Assembly: GCF_004217225.1 (NCBI RefSeq) | Contig: NZ_SHKM01000001.1 | Coordinates: 1,526,137-1,590,136 of the forward strand | Direction: 5' to 3' | DNA length: 64,000 nucleotides | DNA from: Azospira oryzae | Lineage (GTDB): Bacteria; Pseudomonadota; Gammaproteobacteria; Burkholderiales; Rhodocyclaceae | Shown: positions 6,735 through 53,220 of the stretch, one piece after another | Numbering within the stretch: position 1 is the first letter of the stretch | Layout of the letters: every line of letters starts with the position of its first letter | Made by a program: the position numbers and the translations under genes | Notes under the pieces: generated by a model | Told to the model about the DNA's origin: nothing | The model's database searches: none | The model's input: only the letters and a program-made list of their open reading frames with translations

Positions 6735-6821
6735 GGCAATCTCCAGGGGAAGGTGGGCGCCCCGGTCCCGGCCGGAGCGGCGTTATGTGGCGCCAGTATG
6801 GGAATGGCGGATCAATGACGC

Positions 6822-6831
6822 CAATGCATTG
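6822..6831. promoter_or_regulatory. Candidate operator between MFS and LysR genes
   Basis: CAATGCATTG is a perfect ten-base palindrome in the divergent promoter region, 38 bases before the LysR start. It is preceded by another CAATG in direct orientation (6813-6817). Position and symmetry suit a regulator site. No binding evidence exists. Confidence 0.3.
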
Positions 6832-6868
6832 TTATCATCCAACCAATCCATTTTTCAGATTGATCGCC

Positions 6869-7741
6869 ATGAACCTGCGCCAGATCGACTATGCCGTGGC
6901 GGTGGCCGAAACCGGCAGCTTCACCCGGGCCGCCGAGCGCTGCCACACGGTGCAATCCGCCCTCAGCCACCAGATCTCCCGCCTGGAGGAGCAGCTGGGA
7001 GCCCGCCTCTTCGAGCGCACCTCCCGCCGGGTGGCCCTGACCCCGGCCGGCCGCACCTTTCTCACCCACGCCCGCCAGGTGCAGGAAGCCGCCCGCCGCC
7101 TGGGAGACGAAATGGCCGCCGCCACCGGCGAGATCCGGGGCACCCTGACCCTGGGCACCATCTCCACCCTCACCGTGGTGAACCTGCCCGCCCTCCTCGC
7201 CGACTTCCACCGCCGCCACCCCCAGGTGGACATCCGCCTGCACACCGGCATGAGCGACCGCCTGCTGGAAGAACTGCGGCAGCAGGAAACGGATGCCGCC
7301 TTCATCGGCGTCTGGCCCGGCGAGCCGGTGGCCGGGGTGGACGCCCGCATCCTCAGCGAAGAGCCCCTGGTGGCCCTGCTGCACCCGGACCATGCCCTGG
7401 CCGGGCGCAAGCGCCTGAGCCTGGCCGAACTGGCCCGGCAAACCCTGGTGGACTACCAGGCCGGCACCGGCCCCCGGCAACAGACCGACGCCGCCTTCCA
7501 GGCCGCCGCCATCGAGCGCCGGGTGACGGTGGAGGTCAATCACGTGGAATGGCTGGAGGCCCTGGTGCGGCAAAACGTCGGCATCGCCCTGGTGCCCCTG
7601 GCAACGGCCGCCCACTACCCGGGGCTGGTCACCATCCCGGTCCAGGCCGCACCCCGTCGCCGGGTCTACTTCGCCTGGGGCCGCCACCCCACCCCGGCCG
7701 CCCTGGCCTTTCTTGGGCTGGTGCAGCAGGCGCTGGAGTGA
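6869..7741 (+). CDS. LysR-family transcriptional regulator
   Basis: This 290-residue protein has an N-terminal winged helix-turn-helix (residues about 3-60, with the typical AVAETGSFTRAAE and SALSHQISRLEEQLG segments). A LysR substrate-binding domain follows from about residue 90. The start MNLRQID at 6869 is preferred because it aligns with the usual LysR start. An earlier in-frame ATG at 6785 would add an unrelated tail. It is divergent from the MFS exporter, its likely target. Confidence 0.88.
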   Translation: MNLRQIDYAVAVAETGSFTRAAERCHTVQSALSHQISRLEEQLGARLFERTSRRVALTPAGRTFLTHARQVQEAARRLGDEMAAATGEIRGTLTLGTISTLTVVNLPALLADFHRRHPQVDIRLHTGMSDRLLEELRQQETDAAFIGVWPGEPVAGVDARILSEEPLVALLHPDHALAGRKRLSLAELARQTLVDYQAGTGPRQQTDAAFQAAAIERRVTVEVNHVEWLEALVRQNVGIALVPLATAAHYPGLVTIPVQAAPRRRVYFAWGRHPTPAALAFLGLVQQALE

Positions 7742-7779: not shown

Positions 7780-8145
7780 GAGGGACGGACCTTTCGGCCA
7801 TGGCATGGCGGAGAGGGGCGTCGCTGTTGGGTTGTGGGGCTGGTGCTTTTCGGCAGGGGATATTGCCTGTGAGGCTGAATCCTCAGGCGTGGTGGGTTGA
7901 TTGACCGCTGTGTTCCGCGCCTGACGCGCGGGTTACTTGTTCTTGTCTCGCCAAGAATAAGTAACCAACAAGAAGGCGAGCCCGGTTTGGCGCCCCTGCG
8001 GGGTCCCCTGCGCTACTCGCTTCCGGCGGGGGCTGCGCAACTCGGCCTACGGCCTCAGACAGTGCTCGCCCATTTTCTGCCAGAAGCTCCGTTGCTCGGC
8101 GCCGCACAGGGCGGGATTGGCGCTTGCCGGATTCAGCTATCGACC
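7780..8145 (+). repeat. Repeat A, copy 1 (low-coordinate border of cassette array 1)
   Basis: This stretch of about 366 bases is closely similar to 50250-50620. It starts with a hairpin (7784-7822). A second long hairpin, GGTTACTTGTTCTTG paired with CAAGAATAAGTAACC, lies at 7931-7966. The copies differ at paired positions in that stem, which suggests the structure is kept. Small reading frames inside it look like non-coding by-products. In reverse orientation it also resembles repeat B at the other end of the array, so the array lies between diverged inverted repeats. Confidence 0.8.
7784..7822. repeat. Palindromic (REP-like) hairpin at the outer edge of repeat A1
   Basis: Two 19-base arms around one base (GACGGACCTTTCGGCCATG and CATGGCGGAGAGGGGCGTC) form a long imperfect hairpin. 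Related hairpins occur at 10642-10682, 43012-43065, 49041-49089, 50255-50293 and 53169-53208, several preceded by GGAGGCAG or GGCAG. Four of these lie at the outer edges of cassette islands 1 and 3. Confidence 0.6.
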
Positions 8146-8175
8146 TAAAACGGGAATGACCTAGGGAAAGCAGAT

Positions 8176-8255
8176 GTTCAACGTTAAATTAAGCGGCGTG
8201 CCGCTTGTGGCGCGTCTGAGCGACTGAAGGGAACGGTTTTGATGTGATGTTAGGG
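8176..8255 (-). other. attC site 1c (end of array 1)
   Basis: On the reverse strand the site runs from R'' CCCTAAC (8249-8255) to a perfect R' GTTGAAC (8176-8182), 80 bases, with internal dyad symmetry around GCGGCACGCCGC. It is clearly similar to the attC at 52166-52246 in array 3. It follows the lipoprotein gene and is the last recombination site before repeat A. Confidence 0.8.
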
Positions 8256-8272
8256 AGCATTAGTTCCTAAAC

Positions 8273-8602
8273 TCACATCAATTGTTTGACATGTTGAAAG
8301 CTACACGTCGTTGGTGGCGTATCACTCAAGAAACGCCATTTAACAACGACATGATCAGCAGCCCGGATTGATAAAACGTAATCACACTGGTCCGATCTGC
8401 GACTTACAAGTTCATAGGTTTGGGAATTCACTTCACGCCGCTCAAATGACCACTCAATCGGATGGTCATATTTCGGCAATGGCTTTCCGACATATTGATC
8501 CAACACCGTTTCCATATCTTGGTAAGTGACCATCGGAACACAGCCACATAGAAAGCACAGAATCGAGAGAAGAATACCTTTCTCGACGGCAGCCACAAGC
8601 AT
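8273..8602 (-). CDS. Putative lipoprotein, cassette-borne, unknown function
   Basis: The 109-residue product begins with a hydrophobic signal sequence ending in LCFLCGC, whose cysteine at about residue 21 looks like a lipobox. It is therefore probably an envelope lipoprotein. The rest is a small soluble domain with two further cysteines (QCDYV and TCSF) and no family I recognise. The ATG lies just inside the cassette junction, where GTTAGGGAGCCGCGC supplies an AGGGAG ribosome site, so the recombination site itself creates the translation signal. Confidence 0.65.
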   Translation of the reverse strand: MLVAAVEKGILLSILCFLCGCVPMVTYQDMETVLDQYVGKPLPKYDHPIEWSFERREVNSQTYELVSRRSDQCDYVLSIRAADHVVVKWRFLSDTPPTTCSFQHVKQLM

Positions 8603-8610
8603 GCGCGGCT

Positions 8611-8665
8611 CCCTAACGTGGAGCTAATCGGACCTGCGCGGATTTTCGCGCAGGTCCGGTTGAGC
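8611..8665 (-). other. attC site 1b
   Basis: This compact 55-base site has R'' GCTCAAC (8659-8665) and R' GTTAGGG (8611-8617) on the reverse strand. They surround a perfect ten-pair stem, GACCTGCGCG at 8631-8640 with CGCGCAGGTC at 8647-8656. The shape is that of a folded bottom-strand attC substrate for an IntI recombinase. Confidence 0.85.
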
Positions 8666-8709
8666 GCAGACAGACATAGCGATGAGAACTACAACCATAC
8701 CAATTGACC

Positions 8710-9129
8710 TCAAATGATTTTGAAGTACCCCGTGAGATGCCATCCAACTATCCAGCAGATTAGTGAAAAAGCACCGCCGATATATACAACGATGCCACCA
8801 ACGACTGGATCGGCAACTCGCGAAAGAGCCACAACAAGAATTGCGGCAAACCCAAAGGCGGTATTCCCAAGTGTGACGAGAGTGCTGCCGATTTGATGCT
8901 TTTGGCTAGGTGGCGGCCGTGTCAGAGGCGATTTCTCAGTTCGTGATCGGCGACGACCAAATACGAACCACGCAATCAGCGCCATACTAATAATGCCGGC
9001 AAGGCTGCCCGCAAGACGATCAGCAAATCCCAACATCCCAATCAAGGCGGCAAGTAAGGCCCATAGAACCCCACCCGCGATTAGGCATAGACCGAAAAAC
9101 TGAGAGATCAGGATGTTAAGGGGTGGCAT
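8710..9129 (-). CDS. Small four-helix membrane protein, cassette-borne
   Basis: The 139 residues contain four hydrophobic spans (about residues 8-30, 40-58, 85-103 and 110-130) with a basic RRRSRTEKS loop between the second and third. No known family is recognised. It begins 8 bases inside its cassette, without a strong ribosome site, and ends 45 bases before attC 1b. Its membrane character matches most other cassette products here. Confidence 0.65.
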   Translation of the reverse strand: MPPLNILISQFFGLCLIAGGVLWALLAALIGMLGFADRLAGSLAGIISMALIAWFVFGRRRSRTEKSPLTRPPPSQKHQIGSTLVTLGNTAFGFAAILVVALSRVADPVVGGIVVYIGGAFSLICWIVGWHLTGYFKII

Positions 9130-9137
9130 CAGTTGGT

Positions 9138-9207
9138 GCCCAACGTAGAGCTAACCGGCGCTGCGCGGCTTTATCGCGCAGCGTCCGTGTGGACTGCCGG
9201 GTTAGCC
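9138..9207 (-). other. attC site 1a
   Basis: On the reverse strand R'' is GGCTAAC (9201-9207) and R' is GTTGGGC (9138-9144), 70 bases apart end to end. A nine-pair stem joins CGCTGCGCG (9159-9167) to CGCGCAGCG (9175-9183). The potassium-channel gene reads into this site and stops at 9171, giving the tail NPAVHTDAAR. Reading into attC is common for cassette genes. Confidence 0.85.
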
Positions 9208-10076
9208 ATTACTTTCGAAAATTCCTCTTCAAGCAAAAGAATCTGTTGAATTTGAAACTTCACGGTTCGGTAAAGAAGAATGGCCGGTGTAATAACGTTG
9301 GATTGATAAGCCTCTCCATCGGGGCATTGCTCATGTTCTTTAATCAGTTCCTCCAAGGTGTCTTTCAGCAGCTTTCCTCCACCCCCCATTGTTTCGTATG
9401 AGTAGAGTGCTTCACGGACATCTTGAGCTTTTGATATGGTTAAAAAATCTACGACGCCTTGATGAATGGCTGGGTACTCAAGCAAATCGAAATTTGCGAT
9501 CAGAAATTTGAATTCATTTAACACTGCATCCAGTTTTTCAAAGTAATGATGGATGACTGGTTTGCTAAATCCGCTTTTAGTCAGCAGCGATGGCCTGTAA
9601 ATATCTTGGAGATCAGAAAAAAGGAATTCACTATTTGGTTTTTTCTTGCCCTGTCTCTTACTCATAGGAGTGGTGAGTTCGACGAGCGCTATTTCATAAT
9701 CGAAGATCACTACATGCAAATATTTGTAGAAACTGGCCAAGCTATGAAGGTTTTTTACCTGAATGCGACGAGTAATTGACGCCTCTTGCTGCGCCTCGAT
9801 TCGACTGGCAAACGATTGCCACAGAGAACTCAAAAACAAACCAATTATCACAATGCCAAATATGGCTTCACTCGCAACAATCATCATAGCCAGTTCAGAT
9901 TTTGGAGTTATGTCTCCGTAGCCAAGCGTGGTTATCGTTACCGTGCTGAAATAGATGCTCTTGAGCAGCGTGAAATCTGTCTCCTTTGTCGCATCAGGGA
10001 TGTATCGATATGCGAACGCGTAAGCAACTATCAGAAATAGATAGATTGCCAGGAAAAACGAAGGACGTAATTTCAT
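9171..10076 (-). CDS. Two-helix potassium channel, cassette-borne
   Basis: This 301-residue protein has TM1 at about 7-25, a pore helix, the potassium selectivity filter TTLGYGD at 49-55 and TM2 at about 62-84. A 210-residue cytoplasmic domain of no family I recognise follows. It fits the Ion_trans_2 group, which forms tetrameric inner-membrane K+ channels. AGGA seven bases before the ATG supports the start, 19 bases inside the cassette junction. The last residues are encoded by attC 1a. An ion channel is an unusual cassette product. The gene is AT-rich compared with its neighbours, consistent with acquisition. Confidence 0.85.
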   Translation of the reverse strand: MKLRPSFFLAIYLFLIVAYAFAYRYIPDATKETDFTLLKSIYFSTVTITTLGYGDITPKSELAMMIVASEAIFGIVIIGLFLSSLWQSFASRIEAQQEASITRRIQVKNLHSLASFYKYLHVVIFDYEIALVELTTPMSKRQGKKKPNSEFLFSDLQDIYRPSLLTKSGFSKPVIHHYFEKLDAVLNEFKFLIANFDLLEYPAIHQGVVDFLTISKAQDVREALYSYETMGGGGKLLKDTLEELIKEHEQCPDGEAYQSNVITPAILLYRTVKFQIQQILLLEEEFSKVMANPAVHTDAAR

Positions 10077-10090
10077 TGACGGTCCTAATG

Positions 10091-10696
10091 GCTAACTAGT
10101 AGTAGACGACAAAAGTGTCCAATAAAAACGGGACTGTCCAATATCCTGGAACACCGGACAGCCGAAGCGATTGGCCCGCAACGGATTCAGCAAACCTTCC
10201 GTTTACTGGCCTCACTAAAAATCCGTTAAACCGGACAGCCTCAAAGTTACCGTCGGCACACTCACACCGCAACCAAAAGTTGCAAATAGCATATCCCAAA
10301 GAACTACCCCCCAGCCCCAACCGGTGCGATCACCTTCGCCACGCCACCGGTTTTCCATCCCCTTCCCCCCCCGCCGAGCAGCGCAAGGCGGGCGGGGGGC
10401 TTTCGGCGAGGACTGCTTGAGGCCCGAAGGGCCGAGTTCCGCAGCCGCCCCGACCGACTGAGCAGCGCAGGAAAGCCCGCAGGGCCGGGGGTGAGGGTTC
10501 CCCTTCTTTTGGTTCCTTTTCTTGGGGAAGCAAGAAAAGGAACACGCGCGGCGGCGCGGAACCCGGCCGCAAAATCGACAAACCACGCCCCGCCAATCCC
10601 CAGAAACAAAGCCCCAAAACCACCCCGCCACCAAACAAAAAGGACGGCCATCTCCACCATGCCCCGGCGGAAATGCCCGTCCTTCCTGCCTCCTGG
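10091..10696 (-). repeat. Repeat B, copy 1 (promoter-proximal border of array 1)
   Basis: About 606 bases here match 52613-53220. The inner part (10091-10340) has two direct copies of ACCGGACAGCC (10153-10163 and 10230-10240). It ends precisely at the first cassette junction, CTAAC, where an integron attI would be. The outer part is a diverged inverted relative of repeat A, with a perfect 13-pair hairpin (GTTCCTTTTCTTG, 10512-10543). A possible 74-codon frame on the reverse strand changes many residues between the two copies, so the segment is probably not coding. It covers most of the gap between the channel and lipoprotein genes. Confidence 0.8.
10642..10682. repeat. Palindromic (REP-like) hairpin at the outer edge of repeat B1
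   Basis: GGACGGCCATCTCCACC pairs with GGCGGAAATGCCCGTCC across a seven-base loop. Read in reverse complement it resembles the hairpin at the outer end of repeat A, so the two ends of the island mirror each other. Confidence 0.55.
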
Positions 10697-22267: not shown

Positions 22268-22352
22268 CGCCCCCCTGCCCTGCAACCCAATCCCCACGCC
22301 CCTCCCAGCCAGGCCATGCCGGAGAAGCGCATCCCGCCTGCCTCCCAGGCCG
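22268..22352 (-). repeat. Partial inverted relative of repeat A next to array 2
   Basis: On the reverse strand this stretch carries CTGGGAGGCAGG, then GGCATGGCCTGGC, GAGGGGCGT and TTGGGTTG in the same order and spacing as 7770-7840 of repeat A. The match is imperfect, roughly two thirds by eye. It places a member of the same repeat family beside the third cassette array. The rest of the gap before the helicase gene holds only the promoter below. Confidence 0.5.
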
Positions 22353-22404
22353 GCACCCGCAAACTCCCCATTTCCCCCATACCGGCCTCCGGCTCGCATG
22401 GGTG

Positions 22405-37857: not shown

Positions 37858-38085
37858 GCCGCGGCCGTGGCGCCCCGGGCGATGCTGCCGCCCCCGCGGC
37901 TTGCCGCTTATAGGGGACTGCCGCCGGGAAAATCGGCCCGCCTGCCCCGTAAGCGACAACGCCCGCCGAGAGGAGCCCGGCGCGACCGCCGTACAGCACC
38001 TGCCCGCTGAGGCAGCAACGACGCCATTCTCCGATGACCCATGGCTGAGATGGCCGTCCTGCCTGGCCCCCAGGCCACTCCCCTT

Positions 38086-43011: not shown

Positions 43012-43065
43012 GGAACGCCTTGTCCCGCCTGCATCTACGGCATGGCATGGCGGAAATCCGCGTCC
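43012..43065. repeat. Solo REP-like hairpin
   Basis: GGAACGCCTTGTCCCGCC pairs imperfectly with GGCGGAAATCCGCGTCC, and CTTCCTGCC follows. In reverse complement it matches the outer hairpins of repeats A and B. It lies in the 219-base gap after the GlxA-type gene, with no cassette array attached. Confidence 0.45.
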
Positions 43066-43172
43066 TTCCTGCCCCACCGGACAGGCAGGGCGGCAAGCCC
43101 CATCCCTGCGCCTTAAGACCGCCTTAAGATTCGCCGGTTAAGGTGGCGCACAAACTGACTCAGAGTGCCGCC

Positions 43173-49010: not shown

Positions 49011-49040
49011 GGCCGTCACGAAGCACCGCCCTGGAAGGCA

Positions 49041-49091
49041 GAAGGGACGGGCCTCCCCACCGTGCAACGGTGGGAAAGCCCGTCCCTTCTT
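49041..49091. terminator. Bidirectional hairpin terminator, related to the REP-like family
   Basis: GAAGGGACGGGC pairs with GCCCGTCCCTTC, and an inner CCCACCG/CGGTGGG stem closes on TGCAA. The first arm, preceded by GGAAGGCA, resembles the outer end of repeat A. It lies between the convergent efflux and acetyltransferase genes. Confidence 0.75.
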
Positions 49092-49134
49092 GTTGGTGGC
49101 GATGGTGCCGCTGCCAGGCAGCGGACCGCTACGG

Positions 49135-49641
49135 CTAGGCGGTGGCGAAGAAGGCCGGATCGAAGGCGACGCTGGCAGCCGGCAGCGGGCCCTGGAAGGC
49201 CAGGGCCTGGAAGTACTGGGGCGGCACCTCCGGCAGCAGCAGCGGCGCCGCCTGGACGAAGCCGAAGCGGGCGTAGAAGGCCGGCACCCCCACCAGCACG
49301 CAGCCGGCGGCGCCGCGCCGGCGCAGTTCCTCCAGGCCGTGCCGCATCAGCCGGCTGCCGATGCCGCAGCCCTGATGCTCTGGCAGCACCGAAACCGGGC
49401 CGACCCCAAACCAGCCGGGAGCGGCCGGACTCAGGGTCACCGGCGAAAAGGCCACGTGGCCGAGGAGACGCCCGCCCTCCTCCGCCACCAGGGAAAGGCT
49501 GAGCCTGCCGCTATCTCGCAGGGCGCCGACGATGAACTGCTCGGTGCCCGCGCTGTGGGCCGCCGTGGCAAAGGCCAGGCGGGTCAGGTCGAAAATGGCG
49601 GCGCTGTCGGCCGGCTCTTCGGGACGAATGGTGATGGTCAT
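49135..49641 (-). CDS. yjhQ: GNAT acetyltransferase, YjhQ-like antitoxin candidate
   Basis: The 168-residue protein is a GNAT fold with the acetyl-CoA loop VSVLPEHQGCGIGSRLM near residue 85 and the FYARFGF strand typical of this subgroup. Its gene follows an YjhX/TopAI-like toxin gene at 82 bases on the same strand, the order of the E. coli yjhX-yjhQ toxin-antitoxin pair. Antitoxin function is inferred from that synteny. The start at 49641 has AAGGA about ten bases upstream. Confidence 0.75.
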   Translation of the reverse strand: MTITIRPEEPADSAAIFDLTRLAFATAAHSAGTEQFIVGALRDSGRLSLSLVAEEGGRLLGHVAFSPVTLSPAAPGWFGVGPVSVLPEHQGCGIGSRLMRHGLEELRRRGAAGCVLVGVPAFYARFGFVQAAPLLLPEVPPQYFQALAFQGPLPAASVAFDPAFFATA

Positions 49642-49723
49642 GTGATGAATTCCTTTTTGCAATGCAGGCGCCGCTCCGCCCAGCCGCCAGTAGGGACCCG
49701 GGCCGGGCGGTGGCGCGGGAGGA

Positions 49724-49981
49724 TTACTGGTTGTCGAGCTGGCCGCGCACGGCCCCCAGGCCGGCCCGGTTGATCCGGTAAGGCCGGCCGTCCAGGGAGG
49801 CGATGAGGCGCTTGGCCTTCAGCTTCTTGAACACCGGCAAGGTGCAGTCGCTGAGGACGAAACCTTCGCGGGTATAGCAATCGACGTGGGTAATGCGGCC
49901 GGAAGCATCGCGGTGATGTTCGATATGGCCGCCTTTGGCGAGGACGTGCAACGTCCGCTGCTCGGGCTTGGAAAGATTCAT
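49724..49981 (-). CDS. yjhX: TopAI/YjhX-family toxin
   Basis: The 85-residue protein, starting [18 protein letters not shown], matches YjhX in length and in the segments [27 protein letters not shown] and PYRINRAGL. In E. coli YjhX (TopAI) inhibits DNA topoisomerase I and is neutralised by YjhQ. A nine-residue longer frame is rejected because the family starts at MNLS. The pair sits about 700 bases from cassette array 3. Confidence 0.85.
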
Positions 49982-50249
49982 GTTGGATTGTTCCGCAATC
50001 AAATGCACACACGACGGCAGCCTCCGAGAGGCGCCATCGACGCTATGGGCATATCGATAACTCGCGGCCGGCGGGGCCAGACGGAGTTATCGGATTGCGG
50101 CAATCTCCAACATACAGACCTAACTCAAATGGAATGGGCTTGCCCGTTTGCCGGGCAGGCGCGAATGATAGCGCTCCCCTCGGGGCGGGGCAATCGGGGC
50201 GGTGTCGGGCAGGGCGCCGCCGGACGCCTGGCACCCGGCCTGCAAGGCC

Positions 50250-50620
50250 GGAGGGACGGCCCTTCCAGCCATGGCATGGCGGAAGGTGGCGTCGTTATTG
50301 GGTGGTGGCACTGTTGTTTCCGGGACTGCGGGCGAGTTGTTGCCGGTCTGAGTCTTCGGGCGTAGTGAGTTTAGTGACCGCTGCGTTCCGCGCCTGACGC
50401 GCGGGTTACTTTCTTTTGCTTCGCCAAAAGAAGAGTAACCAAAGAAAAGGCGAGCCCGGTTTGGCGCCCCTGCGGGGTCCCCTGCGCTACTCGCTTCCGG
50501 CGGGGGCTGCGCAACTCGGCCCTACGGGCCTCAGACAGTTCTCGCCCTTTTTCCGCCGCAAGCTCCGTTGCTCGGCGCCGCACAGGGCGGGATTGGCGCT
50601 CTCTGATTTTGCTATCGACC
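50250..50620 (+). repeat. Repeat A, copy 2 (low-coordinate border of cassette array 3)
   Basis: This 371-base segment is a diverged copy of 7780-8145, in the same position relative to its cassette array. It opens with the hairpin at 50255-50293. The inner hairpin at 50404-50440 keeps its pairing through compensating changes relative to copy 1. The region between the yjhX start (49982) and this repeat shows no gene-like frame, and frames within the repeat look non-coding. Confidence 0.8.
50255..50293. repeat. REP-like hairpin at the outer edge of repeat A2
   Basis: GACGGCCCTTCCAGCCATG and CATGGCGGAAGGTGGCGTC pair around one base. Relative to copy 1 several changes occur on both arms together, as expected for a conserved structure. 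Confidence 0.6.
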
Positions 50621-50632
50621 CAGCCAGTCAGA

Positions 50633-50731
50633 GGCTAAGGTTGAAGGCCCTTGGCTGCAGGAACCGCGCAGCGGTGGTGAGAATCCACAAGTAAAACTTG
50701 CAGAGCTTTCCACTCGGCTAAGTCGTTAGGC
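50633..50731 (-). other. Degenerate attC site 3d (array end)
   Basis: R'' GCCTAAC (50725-50731) is perfect and contains the stop codon of the gene before it. The proposed R' is CTTAGCC (50633-50639), one base from GTTRRRY. The inner arms CTGCAAG and CTGCAGG pair poorly. It is probably decayed. Confidence 0.5.
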
Positions 50732-51145
50732 AATCTGTTGATGAGGGAAGCGGGCCGTAAAAAACTCAACAAGACGGTCAAAGTCGTCGTGGGGCATCAT
50801 GTCTCGAAGCTGCGTACCGACCCTTTTCCCATCTTTGAGGACGAAGGTCAATTTGTGCTGACTGAATTCGACCGAACCAATCCTCTCCGCTGGAATGGCG
50901 AGCCTGTAGCCAACCAAAACCACGATGCCCGTTTCATCATAGTCGGCAATCGGGAGGTGTCGGTGGTACTTCACCAGATGGAAAGACTTGATGCCAATGG
51001 AAATGCAGTAGGCCCCAAGGAATATAAAGAAGACTCCCTTCGACAAGTCATAGACGAGAAAGTAGAACAACACTGCGAGAGCCGTGTGAACGACTAGCTT
51101 CGGCTTCAGCTTGCCGATGAACTCGGATGAGTAGTAGATCTTCAT
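50726..51145 (-). CDS. Small membrane protein with PH-like tail, cassette-borne
   Basis: The 139-residue product has two membrane spans (about 17-36 and 38-55) and a C-terminal beta-rich domain (AIPAERIGSVEFSQHKLTFV). That arrangement resembles membrane-anchored PH-like or YcxB-type proteins, but no specific family is claimed. It stops inside the R'' box of attC 3d. Its leader within the cassette is about 45 bases with no clear ribosome site. Confidence 0.62.
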   Translation of the reverse strand: MKIYYSSEFIGKLKPKLVVHTALAVLFYFLVYDLSKGVFFIFLGAYCISIGIKSFHLVKYHRHLPIADYDETGIVVLVGYRLAIPAERIGSVEFSQHKLTFVLKDGKRVGTQLRDMMPHDDFDRLVEFFTARFPHQQIA

Positions 51146-51190
51146 GATATTTGAGGGTTACAGGCAATAGATGAAAACAGGGGCAAGACT

Positions 51191-51280
51191 ACCTAGCGTT
51201 GTAGGTAAGGGGCGCTGCGCAGCGGTTTATCGCGCAGCGCCCAGTGACCGAAGGGAGCGGCCTTGAGCGCAATGTTAGGG
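51191..51280 (-). other. attC site 3c
   Basis: R'' is CCCTAAC (51274-51280) and R' is GCTAGGT (51191-51197). A perfect ten-pair stem joins GGCGCTGCGC (51211-51220) to GCGCAGCGCC (51232-51241). The stem and loop closely match attC 1a at 9159-9183 in array 1. Confidence 0.78.
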
Positions 51281-51281
51281 G

Positions 51282-51551
51282 TCATTGCTGTAGCCAAAGC
51301 ATGGCAAGGAAGAAAAGTGCGACAACAACAGTGAGCCAACGAGCCCGGCGTGGGTTAGTTGGGGAAATGCCATACAAATTGTTGAGGCGTAGCTTTTCAG
51401 TAAACGACATTTTTGTAGGAAATGGCCCAACTAAATCTTCGAGGGCTTTAACTTGCTGATGCGGGTTATTGCCGAGTACATCGTTCGCACGAAGGAGTGC
51501 AAAAACGATGGCAATAAGAGCGCCAACAAGGAGCAAATCGAAAAGCGGCAT
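51282..51551 (-). CDS. Small two-helix membrane protein, cassette-borne
   Basis: The start MPLFDLLLVGALIAI at 51551, with AGAGG five bases upstream, gives 89 residues. A longer frame would read through attC 3b and is rejected. There is one membrane span at each end and a polar middle (PHQQVKALEDLVGPF). No family is recognised. Its stop is one base before R'' of attC 3c, a tight fit typical of cassettes. Confidence 0.65.
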   Translation of the reverse strand: MPLFDLLLVGALIAIVFALLRANDVLGNNPHQQVKALEDLVGPFPTKMSFTEKLRLNNLYGISPTNPRRARWLTVVVALFFLAMLWLQQ

Positions 51552-51556
51552 GAGAC

Positions 51557-51655
51557 CTCTAGCGTTCGACGTGAGGGGCCGCCGGAGCGGCGAAGCCGCG
51601 GAGGGTACCTGCCGGCCGCGCCGGCAGGCGGTCCCTCTCGACGGAGTTGTTAGAG
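51557..51655 (-). other. attC site 3b
   Basis: R'' is CTCTAAC (51649-51655), exactly complementary to the start of its cassette. R' is GCTAGAG (51557-51563). The 99-base site holds two GC-rich inverted repeats, including CTGCCGGC...GCCGGCAG and GCGGCGAAGCCGC. This R' has GCT instead of GTT, like the next site. Confidence 0.72.
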
Positions 51656-51658
51656 CGC

Positions 51659-52162
51659 TTAGCTGACACTCCAAACCAAGCAGAAATAGGCATAGCTATT
51701 GGGCGCAACAATCCATGTTTCCAACTGGCTTGGCCAGCCATGAGAGTCATGAAGCCGAAAATGGATTTTGCCTTCCGGGTAGGACGAGTGGATTACATCA
51801 AGAAAGTTCGCAACGGTGGCTTCGGCGTCCGCGGGGCGGGTTACGGTGGTGTCGCCGATGACGCACGCGAAGAAGTCCACCAACTCGGCAGGGGATGTCA
51901 CTGCCTCAGGCATTTGCTGGGAAGCGACACCATCGTTTACCTCAAAATCGCTAACAAGCATGCCGCCTTCCGGAAATGCCTTTTTTGAAATGGCCGACAG
52001 CCCGTCGAGAAATTCAAGTAGAGGTGTAGGCAACTCTCGCGTCGGTGTTAGGCCATTGGAGTCTATACGCGACACCGTTTCGAGCTTCCAGTGCGAGAGG
52101 GTGCTGTCACCCACCACGGCTTCGAGAAGTGTTTCCATCAGGCTTCGGCGGTCGTGGGCCAT
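51659..52162 (-). CDS. Hypothetical soluble protein, cassette-borne
   Basis: The ATG at 52162, three bases after the cassette junction, gives 167 residues (MAHDRRSLMETLLEAVV). A longer frame would start inside the attC of the previous cassette and is rejected. The product is acidic and soluble, with no signal peptide, membrane span or recognised domain. MPEAVTSPAELVDFFACVIG and a Trp-rich C-terminus stand out. The ribosome site is weak, so a later Met (METLL) is possible. Confidence 0.58.
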   Translation of the reverse strand: MAHDRRSLMETLLEAVVGDSTLSHWKLETVSRIDSNGLTPTRELPTPLLEFLDGLSAISKKAFPEGGMLVSDFEVNDGVASQQMPEAVTSPAELVDFFACVIGDTTVTRPADAEATVANFLDVIHSSYPEGKIHFRLHDSHGWPSQLETWIVAPNSYAYFCLVWSVS

Positions 52163-52165
52163 GCG

Positions 52166-52246
52166 CTCTAACGTGCAAAGTAAATGGCGTGCCGCTTGCG
52201 GCACGTCCAAGCGCCTGCAGGGCGCGGTTTGACTGGGATGTTAGAT
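52166..52246 (-). other. attC site 3a
   Basis: R'' is ATCTAAC (52240-52246) and R' is GTTAGAG (52166-52172). The inner GCGTGCCGCTTGCGGCACG palindrome (52188-52206) forms a strong stem. The whole site is similar to attC 1c at 8176-8255. Confidence 0.8.
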
Positions 52247-52247
52247 T

Positions 52248-52607
52248 TCATTTCAGTAGCCACTGCCCAAGGGCGAGAAATGACGCTGCAGTTGCAGCCC
52301 CCAAAAACCAAACCAACATTCTTCCCCAGACCCTGAGCAAGAAATTAAGACCTTCTCGATTGGTGGGGAAATATACGAGCGGAATTTTTGCTTTCAGTTC
52401 GCTTGGCGAAAAACTCTTCACGTCGATAACAAACAGCAAGACGCTAATGAAGAAGTACGCAGCGACCACCGGAAACATTCCTTTTTCGGATGAGCCAGCG
52501 GGGAGCACTTCAAAGTGCTCAAGTGCTTCGAGAACTGCGATGAGTACGACCAGTGATATGCCCGTTATGAAGGCAGATTTACGCGTGGCAGTTGGGAAAG
52601 CGAGCAT
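52248..52607 (-). CDS. Small three-helix membrane protein, first cassette of array 3
   Basis: The 119-residue product has spans at about 13-30, 44-62 and 96-115, with a positively charged loop between the last two. No family is recognised. The ATG is only ten bases inside the cassette junction and has no ribosome site, which suggests weak or leaderless-like translation, or dependence on an upstream frame. It stops one base before attC 3a. Confidence 0.62.
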   Translation of the reverse strand: MLAFPTATRKSAFITGISLVVLIAVLEALEHFEVLPAGSSEKGMFPVVAAYFFISVLLFVIDVKSFSPSELKAKIPLVYFPTNREGLNFLLRVWGRMLVWFLGAATAASFLALGQWLLK

Positions 52608-52612
52608 AAAAT

Positions 52613-53220
52613 TCTAACTAGTAGTAGACGACAAAAACGTCCAATAAAAATGGGACTGTCCAATATCCTGGAACACCGGACAGCCAAATCGATTGTCCCG
52701 CAACGGATTCAGAAAACCTGCCGTTTACTGGCCCCACTAAAAATCCGTGAAACCGGACAGCCTCAAAGTTACCGTCGGAACACCCACACCGCAACCAAAA
52801 GTTGCAAATCGCATATCCCAATAACCTAAATCACCCACCCCAAACCGGTGAGAACACCTTCGCTACGCCACCGGCTTTCCATCCCCTTCCACCCCCGCCG
52901 AGCAGCGCAAGGCGGGCGGGGGGCTTTCGGCGAGGACTGTCTGAGCCCCCGCAGGGGGCGAGTTCCGCAGCCGCCCCGCTCGGCTGAGCAGCGCAGGGAA
53001 GCCCGCAGGGCCGGGGGTGAGGGTTCCCCTTCTTTTGGTTCCTTTTCTTGGGGAAGCAAGAAAAGGAACACGCGCGGCGGCGCGGAACCCAGCCGCAAAA
53101 TCAGCAAACCACGCCCAACCAATCCCCCAGTAACAAAGCCCCCCCCCACCCCGCCACCAAACAAAAAAGACGGCCATCCCCACCATACCCCGGTGGAAAC
53201 GCCCGTCCCCATTGCCTCCC
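52613..53220 (-). repeat. Repeat B, copy 2 (promoter-proximal border of array 3)
   Basis: This is the counterpart of 10091-10696. The inner 230-250 bases keep both ACCGGACAGCC direct repeats (52675-52685 and 52752-52762) and stop exactly at the cassette junction CTAAC. The outer part carries the perfect GTTCCTTTTCTTG hairpin (53038-53069) and a border hairpin (53169-53208). It fills the gap between the first cassette gene and the reductase gene. The short reverse-strand frame it contains is probably not coding. Confidence 0.8.
53169..53208. repeat. REP-like hairpin at the outer edge of repeat B2
   Basis: GACGGCCATCCCCACC pairs with GGTGGAAACGCCCGTCC. Compared with copy 1, changes on the two arms partly compensate. 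Confidence 0.55.

What the first reader, a model, noticed from the sequence alone, without database searches (positions are those of the whole stretch)
7780..10696. Cassette array 1 lies between diverged inverted repeats, like a transferable unit
Repeat A (7780-8145) read forward resembles the outer part of repeat B (about 10340-10696) read in reverse: an outer palindromic hairpin, then GTTCCGCGCC, a long hairpin with AAGAAAA-type arms, and similar GC-rich text inwards. The array is enclosed by inverted copies, as in MITE-bracketed or integron-mobilising units. Neither repeat encodes a transposase.
Basis: partly seen in the sequence, partly recalled or inferred. Interest (0 to 1): 0.8.

Follow-up and report, generated by a model that had tools for sequence, protein, structure and literature searches.

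The report
Paired structured ends bracketing swappable cargo
The two repeats around this gene-cassette array look like the left and right ends of a dispersed chromosomal element that, from copy to copy, encloses almost nothing, a single foreign gene, or an integron landing site with cassettes but no integrase.

Summary
Repeat A matches reverse-complemented repeat B far beyond shuffles (score 112; best of 300 shuffles 37). The outer palindrome belongs to a separate dispersed hairpin family; the unit is about 7884-10592.

A and B are not two copies of a MITE. They are the distinct ends of a paired element (~480 bp when empty) found in many Betaproteobacteria. Neighbouring halves are convergent in 79 cases, divergent in 6, tandem in 2; centres are bimodal, 59 of 32-228 bp and 20 of 788-5097 bp. 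Each end folds into an arm with strong compensatory changes.

The window's genome has six A and six B ends, all paired. Four pairs carry a cassette array starting at an attI like that beside the genome's only full-length integron integrase; two carry one gene. Cargo is AT-rich in 20 of 20 loaded units. Likeliest reading: a non-autonomous cargo element whose array copies are loaded in trans by the resident IntI.

Movement of the whole unit is not shown: no transposase, no target-site duplication (65 pairs), no exactly alignable empty site.

The parts
7884..8116 (+). A end of unit U1 (model core 7907-8111), outer end on the left
   Evidence: A clade
8176..8257 (-). attC of the third (last) cassette
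   Evidence: reported there over-extended to 8300; limits read
8273..8602 (-). cassette ORF, 109 aa, no Pfam match
8608..8671 (-). attC-like site of the second cassette; R'' side degenerate, not called by the script
   Evidence: read; similar to 9139-9187
8710..9129 (-). cassette ORF, 139 aa, membrane-protein-like, no confident family
9139..9208 (-). attC of the first cassette
   Evidence: 9149-9208; R' side read
9171..10076 (-). first cassette ORF, 301 aa, Ion_trans_2 (5e-15)
10090..10340 (-). attI block; cassette crossover G^TTA between 10096 and 10095; last ~71 nt like the attI beside the resident intI
10355..10592 (-). B end of unit U1 (model core 10370-10567), outer end on the right
   Evidence: B clade
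50348..50600 (+). A end of unit U2
52614..52863 (-). attI block of unit U2, 90% identical to that of U1
52880..53115 (-). B end of unit U2 (model core 52891-53093)
50726..52600 (-). cassette array of unit U2 (ORFs 50726-51145, 51282-51674, 51659-52210 and more, attC at 52166-52247)
7780..7815 (.). outer palindrome, judged OUTSIDE the unit (dispersed terminator-like hairpin)
   Evidence: 19 of 30 matches are to this part alone
10641..10690 (.). outer palindrome on the right, judged OUTSIDE the unit
   Evidence: U6 lacks it

Best explanation
A and B are the two distinct ends of a dispersed, chromosomal, non-autonomous element that holds interchangeable cargo. SHOWN: the ends recur as convergent A+B pairs; each end is a conserved folded arm; the pair encloses a 32-228 bp centre, a single AT-rich gene, or an attI followed by cassettes; in the window's genus cargo always reads from B towards A. 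SHOWN: the attI in the array-bearing units is closely similar to the attI beside the genome's only full-length integron integrase, and the sites diverge at the integron crossover point. INFERRED: that IntI, encoded elsewhere (C3), inserts and shuffles cassettes in these units in trans, so the genome runs one integrase on six attI platforms. INFERRED: the pair spreads, and its cargo is exchanged, by an activity supplied in trans (an unidentified recombinase that recognises the folded ends) and/or by homologous recombination between dispersed ends.
For: Six A and six B ends in G000, all paired. A and B form two clades (support 0.999); 11 of 11 genus units plus one from another genus have one of each. 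79 convergent against 6 divergent and 2 tandem neighbours, with bimodal gaps. 37 consensus pairs, 24 with changes on both sides; covariation 0.428 against 0.151 shuffled and at most 0.105 slid. Cargo GC below ends and flanks in 20 of 20 loaded units. attI shared with the resident integron: 87% over 71 nt, nine sites alike up to the crossover. attC in 6 of 6 attI units and 0 of 4 others scanned. B ends of array units and single-gene units up to 97.5% identical. V21 and U6 lie between orthologous genes with similar ends and different cargo. Cargo reads B to A in 11 of 11 genus units.
Against: 74 half copies had no detected partner, 41 of them with at least 2 kb of sequence inward. No single A/B split fits all lineages: 38 of 72 pairs, shuffled mean 31 and maximum 40. 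No transposase in cargo, no target-site duplication, no exactly alignable empty site. Extra DNA beside U6 means that more than cargo changed at that site. No sigma-70-like promoter was found in the B ends of U1 and U2. Trans action of IntI is untested.
Confidence: 0.68

Rival explanations
1. A true non-autonomous transposon: both ends are bound by one transposase from elsewhere, and ends plus cargo move as one block, with left-end and right-end types.
For: Distinct end types, always paired in the genus; dispersed copies with unrelated flanks; at least ten distinct places of about 500 nt each listed in G063 and in G080; B-attI blocks 79-90% alike at unrelated sites.
Against: No target-site duplication in 65 pairs, no candidate transposase in 39 cargo proteins, almost no copies on plasmids or phages. 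Y1 transposases are absent from 10 of 21 genomes, including all three of the genus.
Confidence: 0.35
2. A recombination frame: the ends do not transpose; cargo is exchanged between copies and strains by homologous recombination in the conserved ends, for example after DNA uptake.
For: Array and single-gene units share near-identical ends (97.0-97.5%); V21 and U6 have similar ends and different cargo between orthologous genes; attI units do not form one clade in either end tree.
Against: Does not by itself explain how ends reached many unrelated sites, nor the strict A+B pairing. It predicts some conversion between mates, yet 0 of 144 halves is nearest to its mate.
Confidence: 0.3
3. The paired arms are structured RNAs or transcription insulators placed around foreign AT-rich genes; their spread is by other means and the arrays are bystanders.
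For: Covarying arms; 10 and 11 terminator-like sites in the two B regions against 1.8 expected; AT-rich cargo.
Against: 59 of 79 pairs enclose almost nothing; no Rfam family matches at gathering threshold.
Confidence: 0.15
4. An ordinary CALIN left by loss of intI from a chromosomal integron, flanked by unrelated repeats by chance.
For: No intI in the unit; CALINs are common and intI loss is one proposed origin (PMC8618304, passages seen).
Against: The same B-plus-attI junction recurs in six units at unrelated sites; the same ends enclose non-cassette cargo; the resident integron has no A or B end beside it.
Confidence: 0.05

Closest known systems
TIME-COMPs, including the integron mobilization unit (PMC13367494: abstract and passages seen)
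   Same: A non-autonomous short element brackets a cargo, in some cases an integron, and depends on an enzyme in trans.
   Different: There, two copies of one Tn3-derived element bracket the cargo, mostly on plasmids and with direct repeats. Here the brackets are two distinct ends, chromosomal, with no direct repeats found and with covarying folded arms.
CALIN / integron cassette array (PMC8618304: passages seen)
   Same: attC-bearing cassettes without a neighbouring integrase gene.
   Different: A cognate attI is present in each array unit, and the array is one of several cargo types inside a recurring pair of ends.
REPtrons and IS200/IS605-type elements (recalled, no paper read)
   Same: Hairpin-bearing ends, no target duplication, dispersed intergenic copies.
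   Different: No Y1 transposase in any cargo protein scanned and none near a half; several copy-bearing genomes lack Y1 genes. The ends are ~210-nt multi-helix arms on opposite strands.
Defence hotspots of P2 phages and P4 satellites (PMC9122126: search listing and start of abstract only)
   Same: Fixed frame with variable, partly defence-related genes.
   Different: Those are phage or satellite loci; this frame is non-coding and chromosomal.

Membership tests
Integron cassette array / CALIN | attC sites between ORFs | tested here: met
   Called in U1-U4, V19 and V23, and in none of U5, U6, V20, V21; single calls are by a simple script
Integron cassette array / CALIN | No intI in or next to the array | tested here: met
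   Only IntI over cut-off in G000 is on C3:84197-85135
Complete integron | attI cognate to an integrase | tested here: met
   87% over 71 nt with the attI beside the resident IntI; divergence at the crossover in nine sites; activity untested
Complete integron | intI within the unit | tested here: not met
MITE | Short non-coding element with inverted ends | tested here: met
   Empty form about 480 bp, inverted halves
MITE | Direct repeats on insertion | tested here: not met
   65 of 79 pairs, fixed-offset k-mer test; exact outer ends are uncertain
MITE | Ends shared with an autonomous transposon | tested here: inconclusive
   No transposase in 39 cargo proteins; no exhaustive search for an autonomous copy
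TIME-COMP / integron mobilization unit | Two copies of the same element bracket the cargo | tested here: not met
   One A and one B in 11 of 11 genus units; 0 of 144 halves nearest to its mate
TIME-COMP / integron mobilization unit | Tn3-family terminal inverted repeats | not tested
   Looked at only by eye; no Tn3 ends were compared
REPtron / IS200-IS605 | Y1 transposase inside or associated | tested here: not met
   0 of 18 Y1 loci (about 1.5 kb each side) hold a half; no Y1 gene in G000, G001, G002
Known structured RNA family | Match at Rfam gathering threshold | tested here: not met
   none

The most novel reading that the evidence does not exclude
A previously unnamed class of chromosomal cargo element: two different folded ends of about 210 nt form a docking frame into which single defence-like genes or an attI platform are swapped, with the mobilising activity in trans. 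In this genus it has turned one integrase into a distributed integron with six attI platforms in one genome, four of them inside such frames.
Probability: 0.4. Interest if true: 0.9.

Novelty: new variant of a known kind. Interest (0 to 1): 0.75.

Why it matters
If correct, cassettes and single-gene cargo (3 of 39 cargo proteins strongly match PADLOC defence or candidate-defence families) spread through many betaproteobacterial chromosomes in a non-coding frame that gene annotation does not see. It would explain how some integrase-less cassette arrays arise and stay loadable, and it makes a direct prediction: one IntI should act on attI sites far away in the genome. The 214-position model of the ends makes the frame searchable.

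Tried and rejected
Rejected: the outer palindrome as part of the bracket. Rejected: two copies of one MITE. Rejected: Y1/RAYT as resident mobiliser in this genus. Rejected: plasmids or phages as the usual carrier (one weak match in a 2.5-Mb Variovorax record, one viral contig, no phage record).

Led nowhere: exact empty sites. The U3 site in G001 and the livG-livF site in relatives lack the unit in some genomes, but the intergenic text does not align. A single global A/B split of 72 pairs was no better than shuffled pairs. The first attC script crashed and was rerun; it misses degenerate attC and over-extends others. Promoter scans of the B ends found nothing. Ten literature searches listed no paper that I recognised as describing this repeat family; the library lacks preprints and most subscription journals. 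From memory, similar repeats occur in Pseudomonas and Xanthomonas; I did not test this, and the exact-pattern survey of the class found 2 of 143 genomes positive, own genome included.

Dropped before counting: half hits below 28 bits; 7 of 79 pairs with a short half; 14 of 79 pairs without full ends or flanks; small, antisense or attI-region ORFs of the loaded units (39 proteins sent to the family searches).

Full report
WHAT WAS CLAIMED.

OBSERVATION. A aligns with reverse-complemented B: 71% over 304 nt, E=2e-30; score 112 against a maximum of 37 in 300 dinucleotide shuffles, and 105 against 28 without the outer hairpins. The outer hairpin is a separate dispersed family: 19 of 30 own-genome matches to A are to that part alone, and U6 has the core ends without it. 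The unit is therefore about 7884-10592.

SIX UNITS IN ONE GENOME. The own genome (G000, 3.45 Mb, 6 contigs) has six A ends and six B ends, each A facing a B within about 1.5-5.6 kb. U1 and U2 lie in the window; U3 is at C3:175.8 kb, U4 at C1:1417.7 kb, U5 at C1:96.1 kb, U6 at C2:561.9 kb. The flanks are unrelated. G001 (same genus) has four pairs and two end fragments; G002 has one pair and one single A. A and B form two clades with support 0.999, and all 11 genus units plus one from another genus have one of each.

A WIDESPREAD PAIRED ELEMENT. Of 61 genomes searched (own included), 12 match A. Drawn evenly over the class the pattern is rare: 2 of 143 genomes, own included. A model of the half element gave 241 hits in 157 sequences. 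Neighbouring halves are convergent in 79 cases, divergent in 6 and tandem in 2. Gaps fall in two groups, 59 of 32-228 bp and 20 of 788-5097 bp. Against strict pairing: 74 halves had no detected partner, 41 of them with at least 2 kb inward. In a tree of 144 halves from 72 pairs, none is nearest to its own mate, although no single A/B split serves all lineages (38 of 72, within the shuffled range). G063 and G080 each list at least ten distinct places of about 500 nt.

THE ENDS ARE FOLDED. An alignment of 80 halves (103 met the length filter, and I chose 80) gives 37 consensus pairs, 24 with changes on both sides. 94.5% of cells are paired; the covariation score is 0.428, against 0.151 in shuffles and at most 0.105 in slid controls. 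Relatedness inflates the shuffle control, and the structure was derived from this same alignment, which favours it over slid versions. Whether DNA or RNA is selected is not known. No Rfam family matches at gathering threshold.

CARGO. Of 20 loaded pairs, six (all in this genus) hold attI plus cassettes and 14 hold one gene or, in L026 and L065, a second small ORF. Cargo is AT-rich (42.5-53.1% GC) relative to ends and flanks in 20 of 20. Of 39 cargo proteins sent, none matched a transposase or recombinase family at E up to 0.01. Single-gene cargo includes PD-T7-4 (L021, 3.5e-69), PDC-S33 with a RelA_SpoT domain (L070, 3e-104), PDC-S67 (L062, 2.3e-56), DUF4062 (L020) and a weak HEPN match (L125). 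PADLOC includes candidates, so 'defence' is a lead. In the genus, cargo reads from B to A in 11 of 11 units.

THE INTEGRON LINK. One IntI passes the cut-off in G000 (C3:84197-85135, 478 bits) and one in G001; G002 has only fragments and no attI match. The attI beside the G000 IntI is 87% identical over 71 nt to the inner end of the unit's attI block. Nine sites in two genomes are alike up to CTACTACTAG and diverge just after it, at the integron crossover. attC are called in all six attI units and in none of the four attI-less ones scanned. About 180 nt of the block is shared among units but not with the resident integron, which suggests that one attI was captured in a unit and then multiplied (inference). 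G000 and G001 each also have one further attI array with neither IntI nor A/B ends. G000 thus has six attI sites for one IntI.

CARGO EXCHANGE. The B ends of an array unit and a single-gene unit can be 97.0-97.5% identical (U4/U6, U3/U5). V21 (G001) and U6 (G000) sit between orthologous genes (92.8% and 96.3%), with ends about 95% identical and different cargo. Extra DNA beside U6 shows that more than the cargo changed there.

MOBILITY. No target-site duplication stands out in 65 pairs. The U3 site is short in G001 (about 210 nt against 3.0 kb). A livG-livF site holds the unit in some relatives and 73-114 nt in others. In neither case can breakpoints be placed. Copies are almost absent from plasmids (one weak match in 72,556 records), phage records (0 of 50,697) and viral contigs (one). 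Y1 transposase genes are absent from 10 of 21 genomes, including the three of this genus, and none of 18 Y1 loci lies near a half.

VERDICT. The bracket is real, and it is a recurring frame of two distinct ends, not a pair of MITEs. An attI cognate to the resident IntI makes loading in trans likely but untested. How the frame itself spreads is open. The genus is not named by any search; that it may be Azospira is a guess from memory.

Noticed in passing
window 49025-50230 and 6785-7741; L039: In G001 the segment that lies left of U2 in the window (acetyltransferase and a small gene) sits beside the LysR gene that is left of U1: a rearrangement between the two unit sites.
   Followed up: partly
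window 7780-7815, 10641-10690, 22274-22353, 38009-38060, 43032-43073, 49025-49110: A dispersed terminator-like hairpin family (GACGGGCC..GGCCCGTC type), often next to the units but mostly on its own.
   Followed up: partly
L228 around 10267 (G000 C2:305 kb); L171 around 7469 (G001 C3:340 kb): A further attI with a cassette array but with neither intI nor A/B ends, sharing upstream text in the two species.
   Followed up: partly
window 10132-10163 and 52654-52685 (minus strand): A 14-pair hairpin with a T run lies just upstream of attI in the units; similar text is upstream of attI beside intI.
   Followed up: no
L227:8944-10401: The one viral contig with the element: a loaded pair (303-aa ORF) between phage-like genes and murB. 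Gene names here are from reading the translation.
   Followed up: no
G002 C1:2082184-2082680: G002 keeps only fragments of an integron integrase and has no attI match.
   Followed up: no
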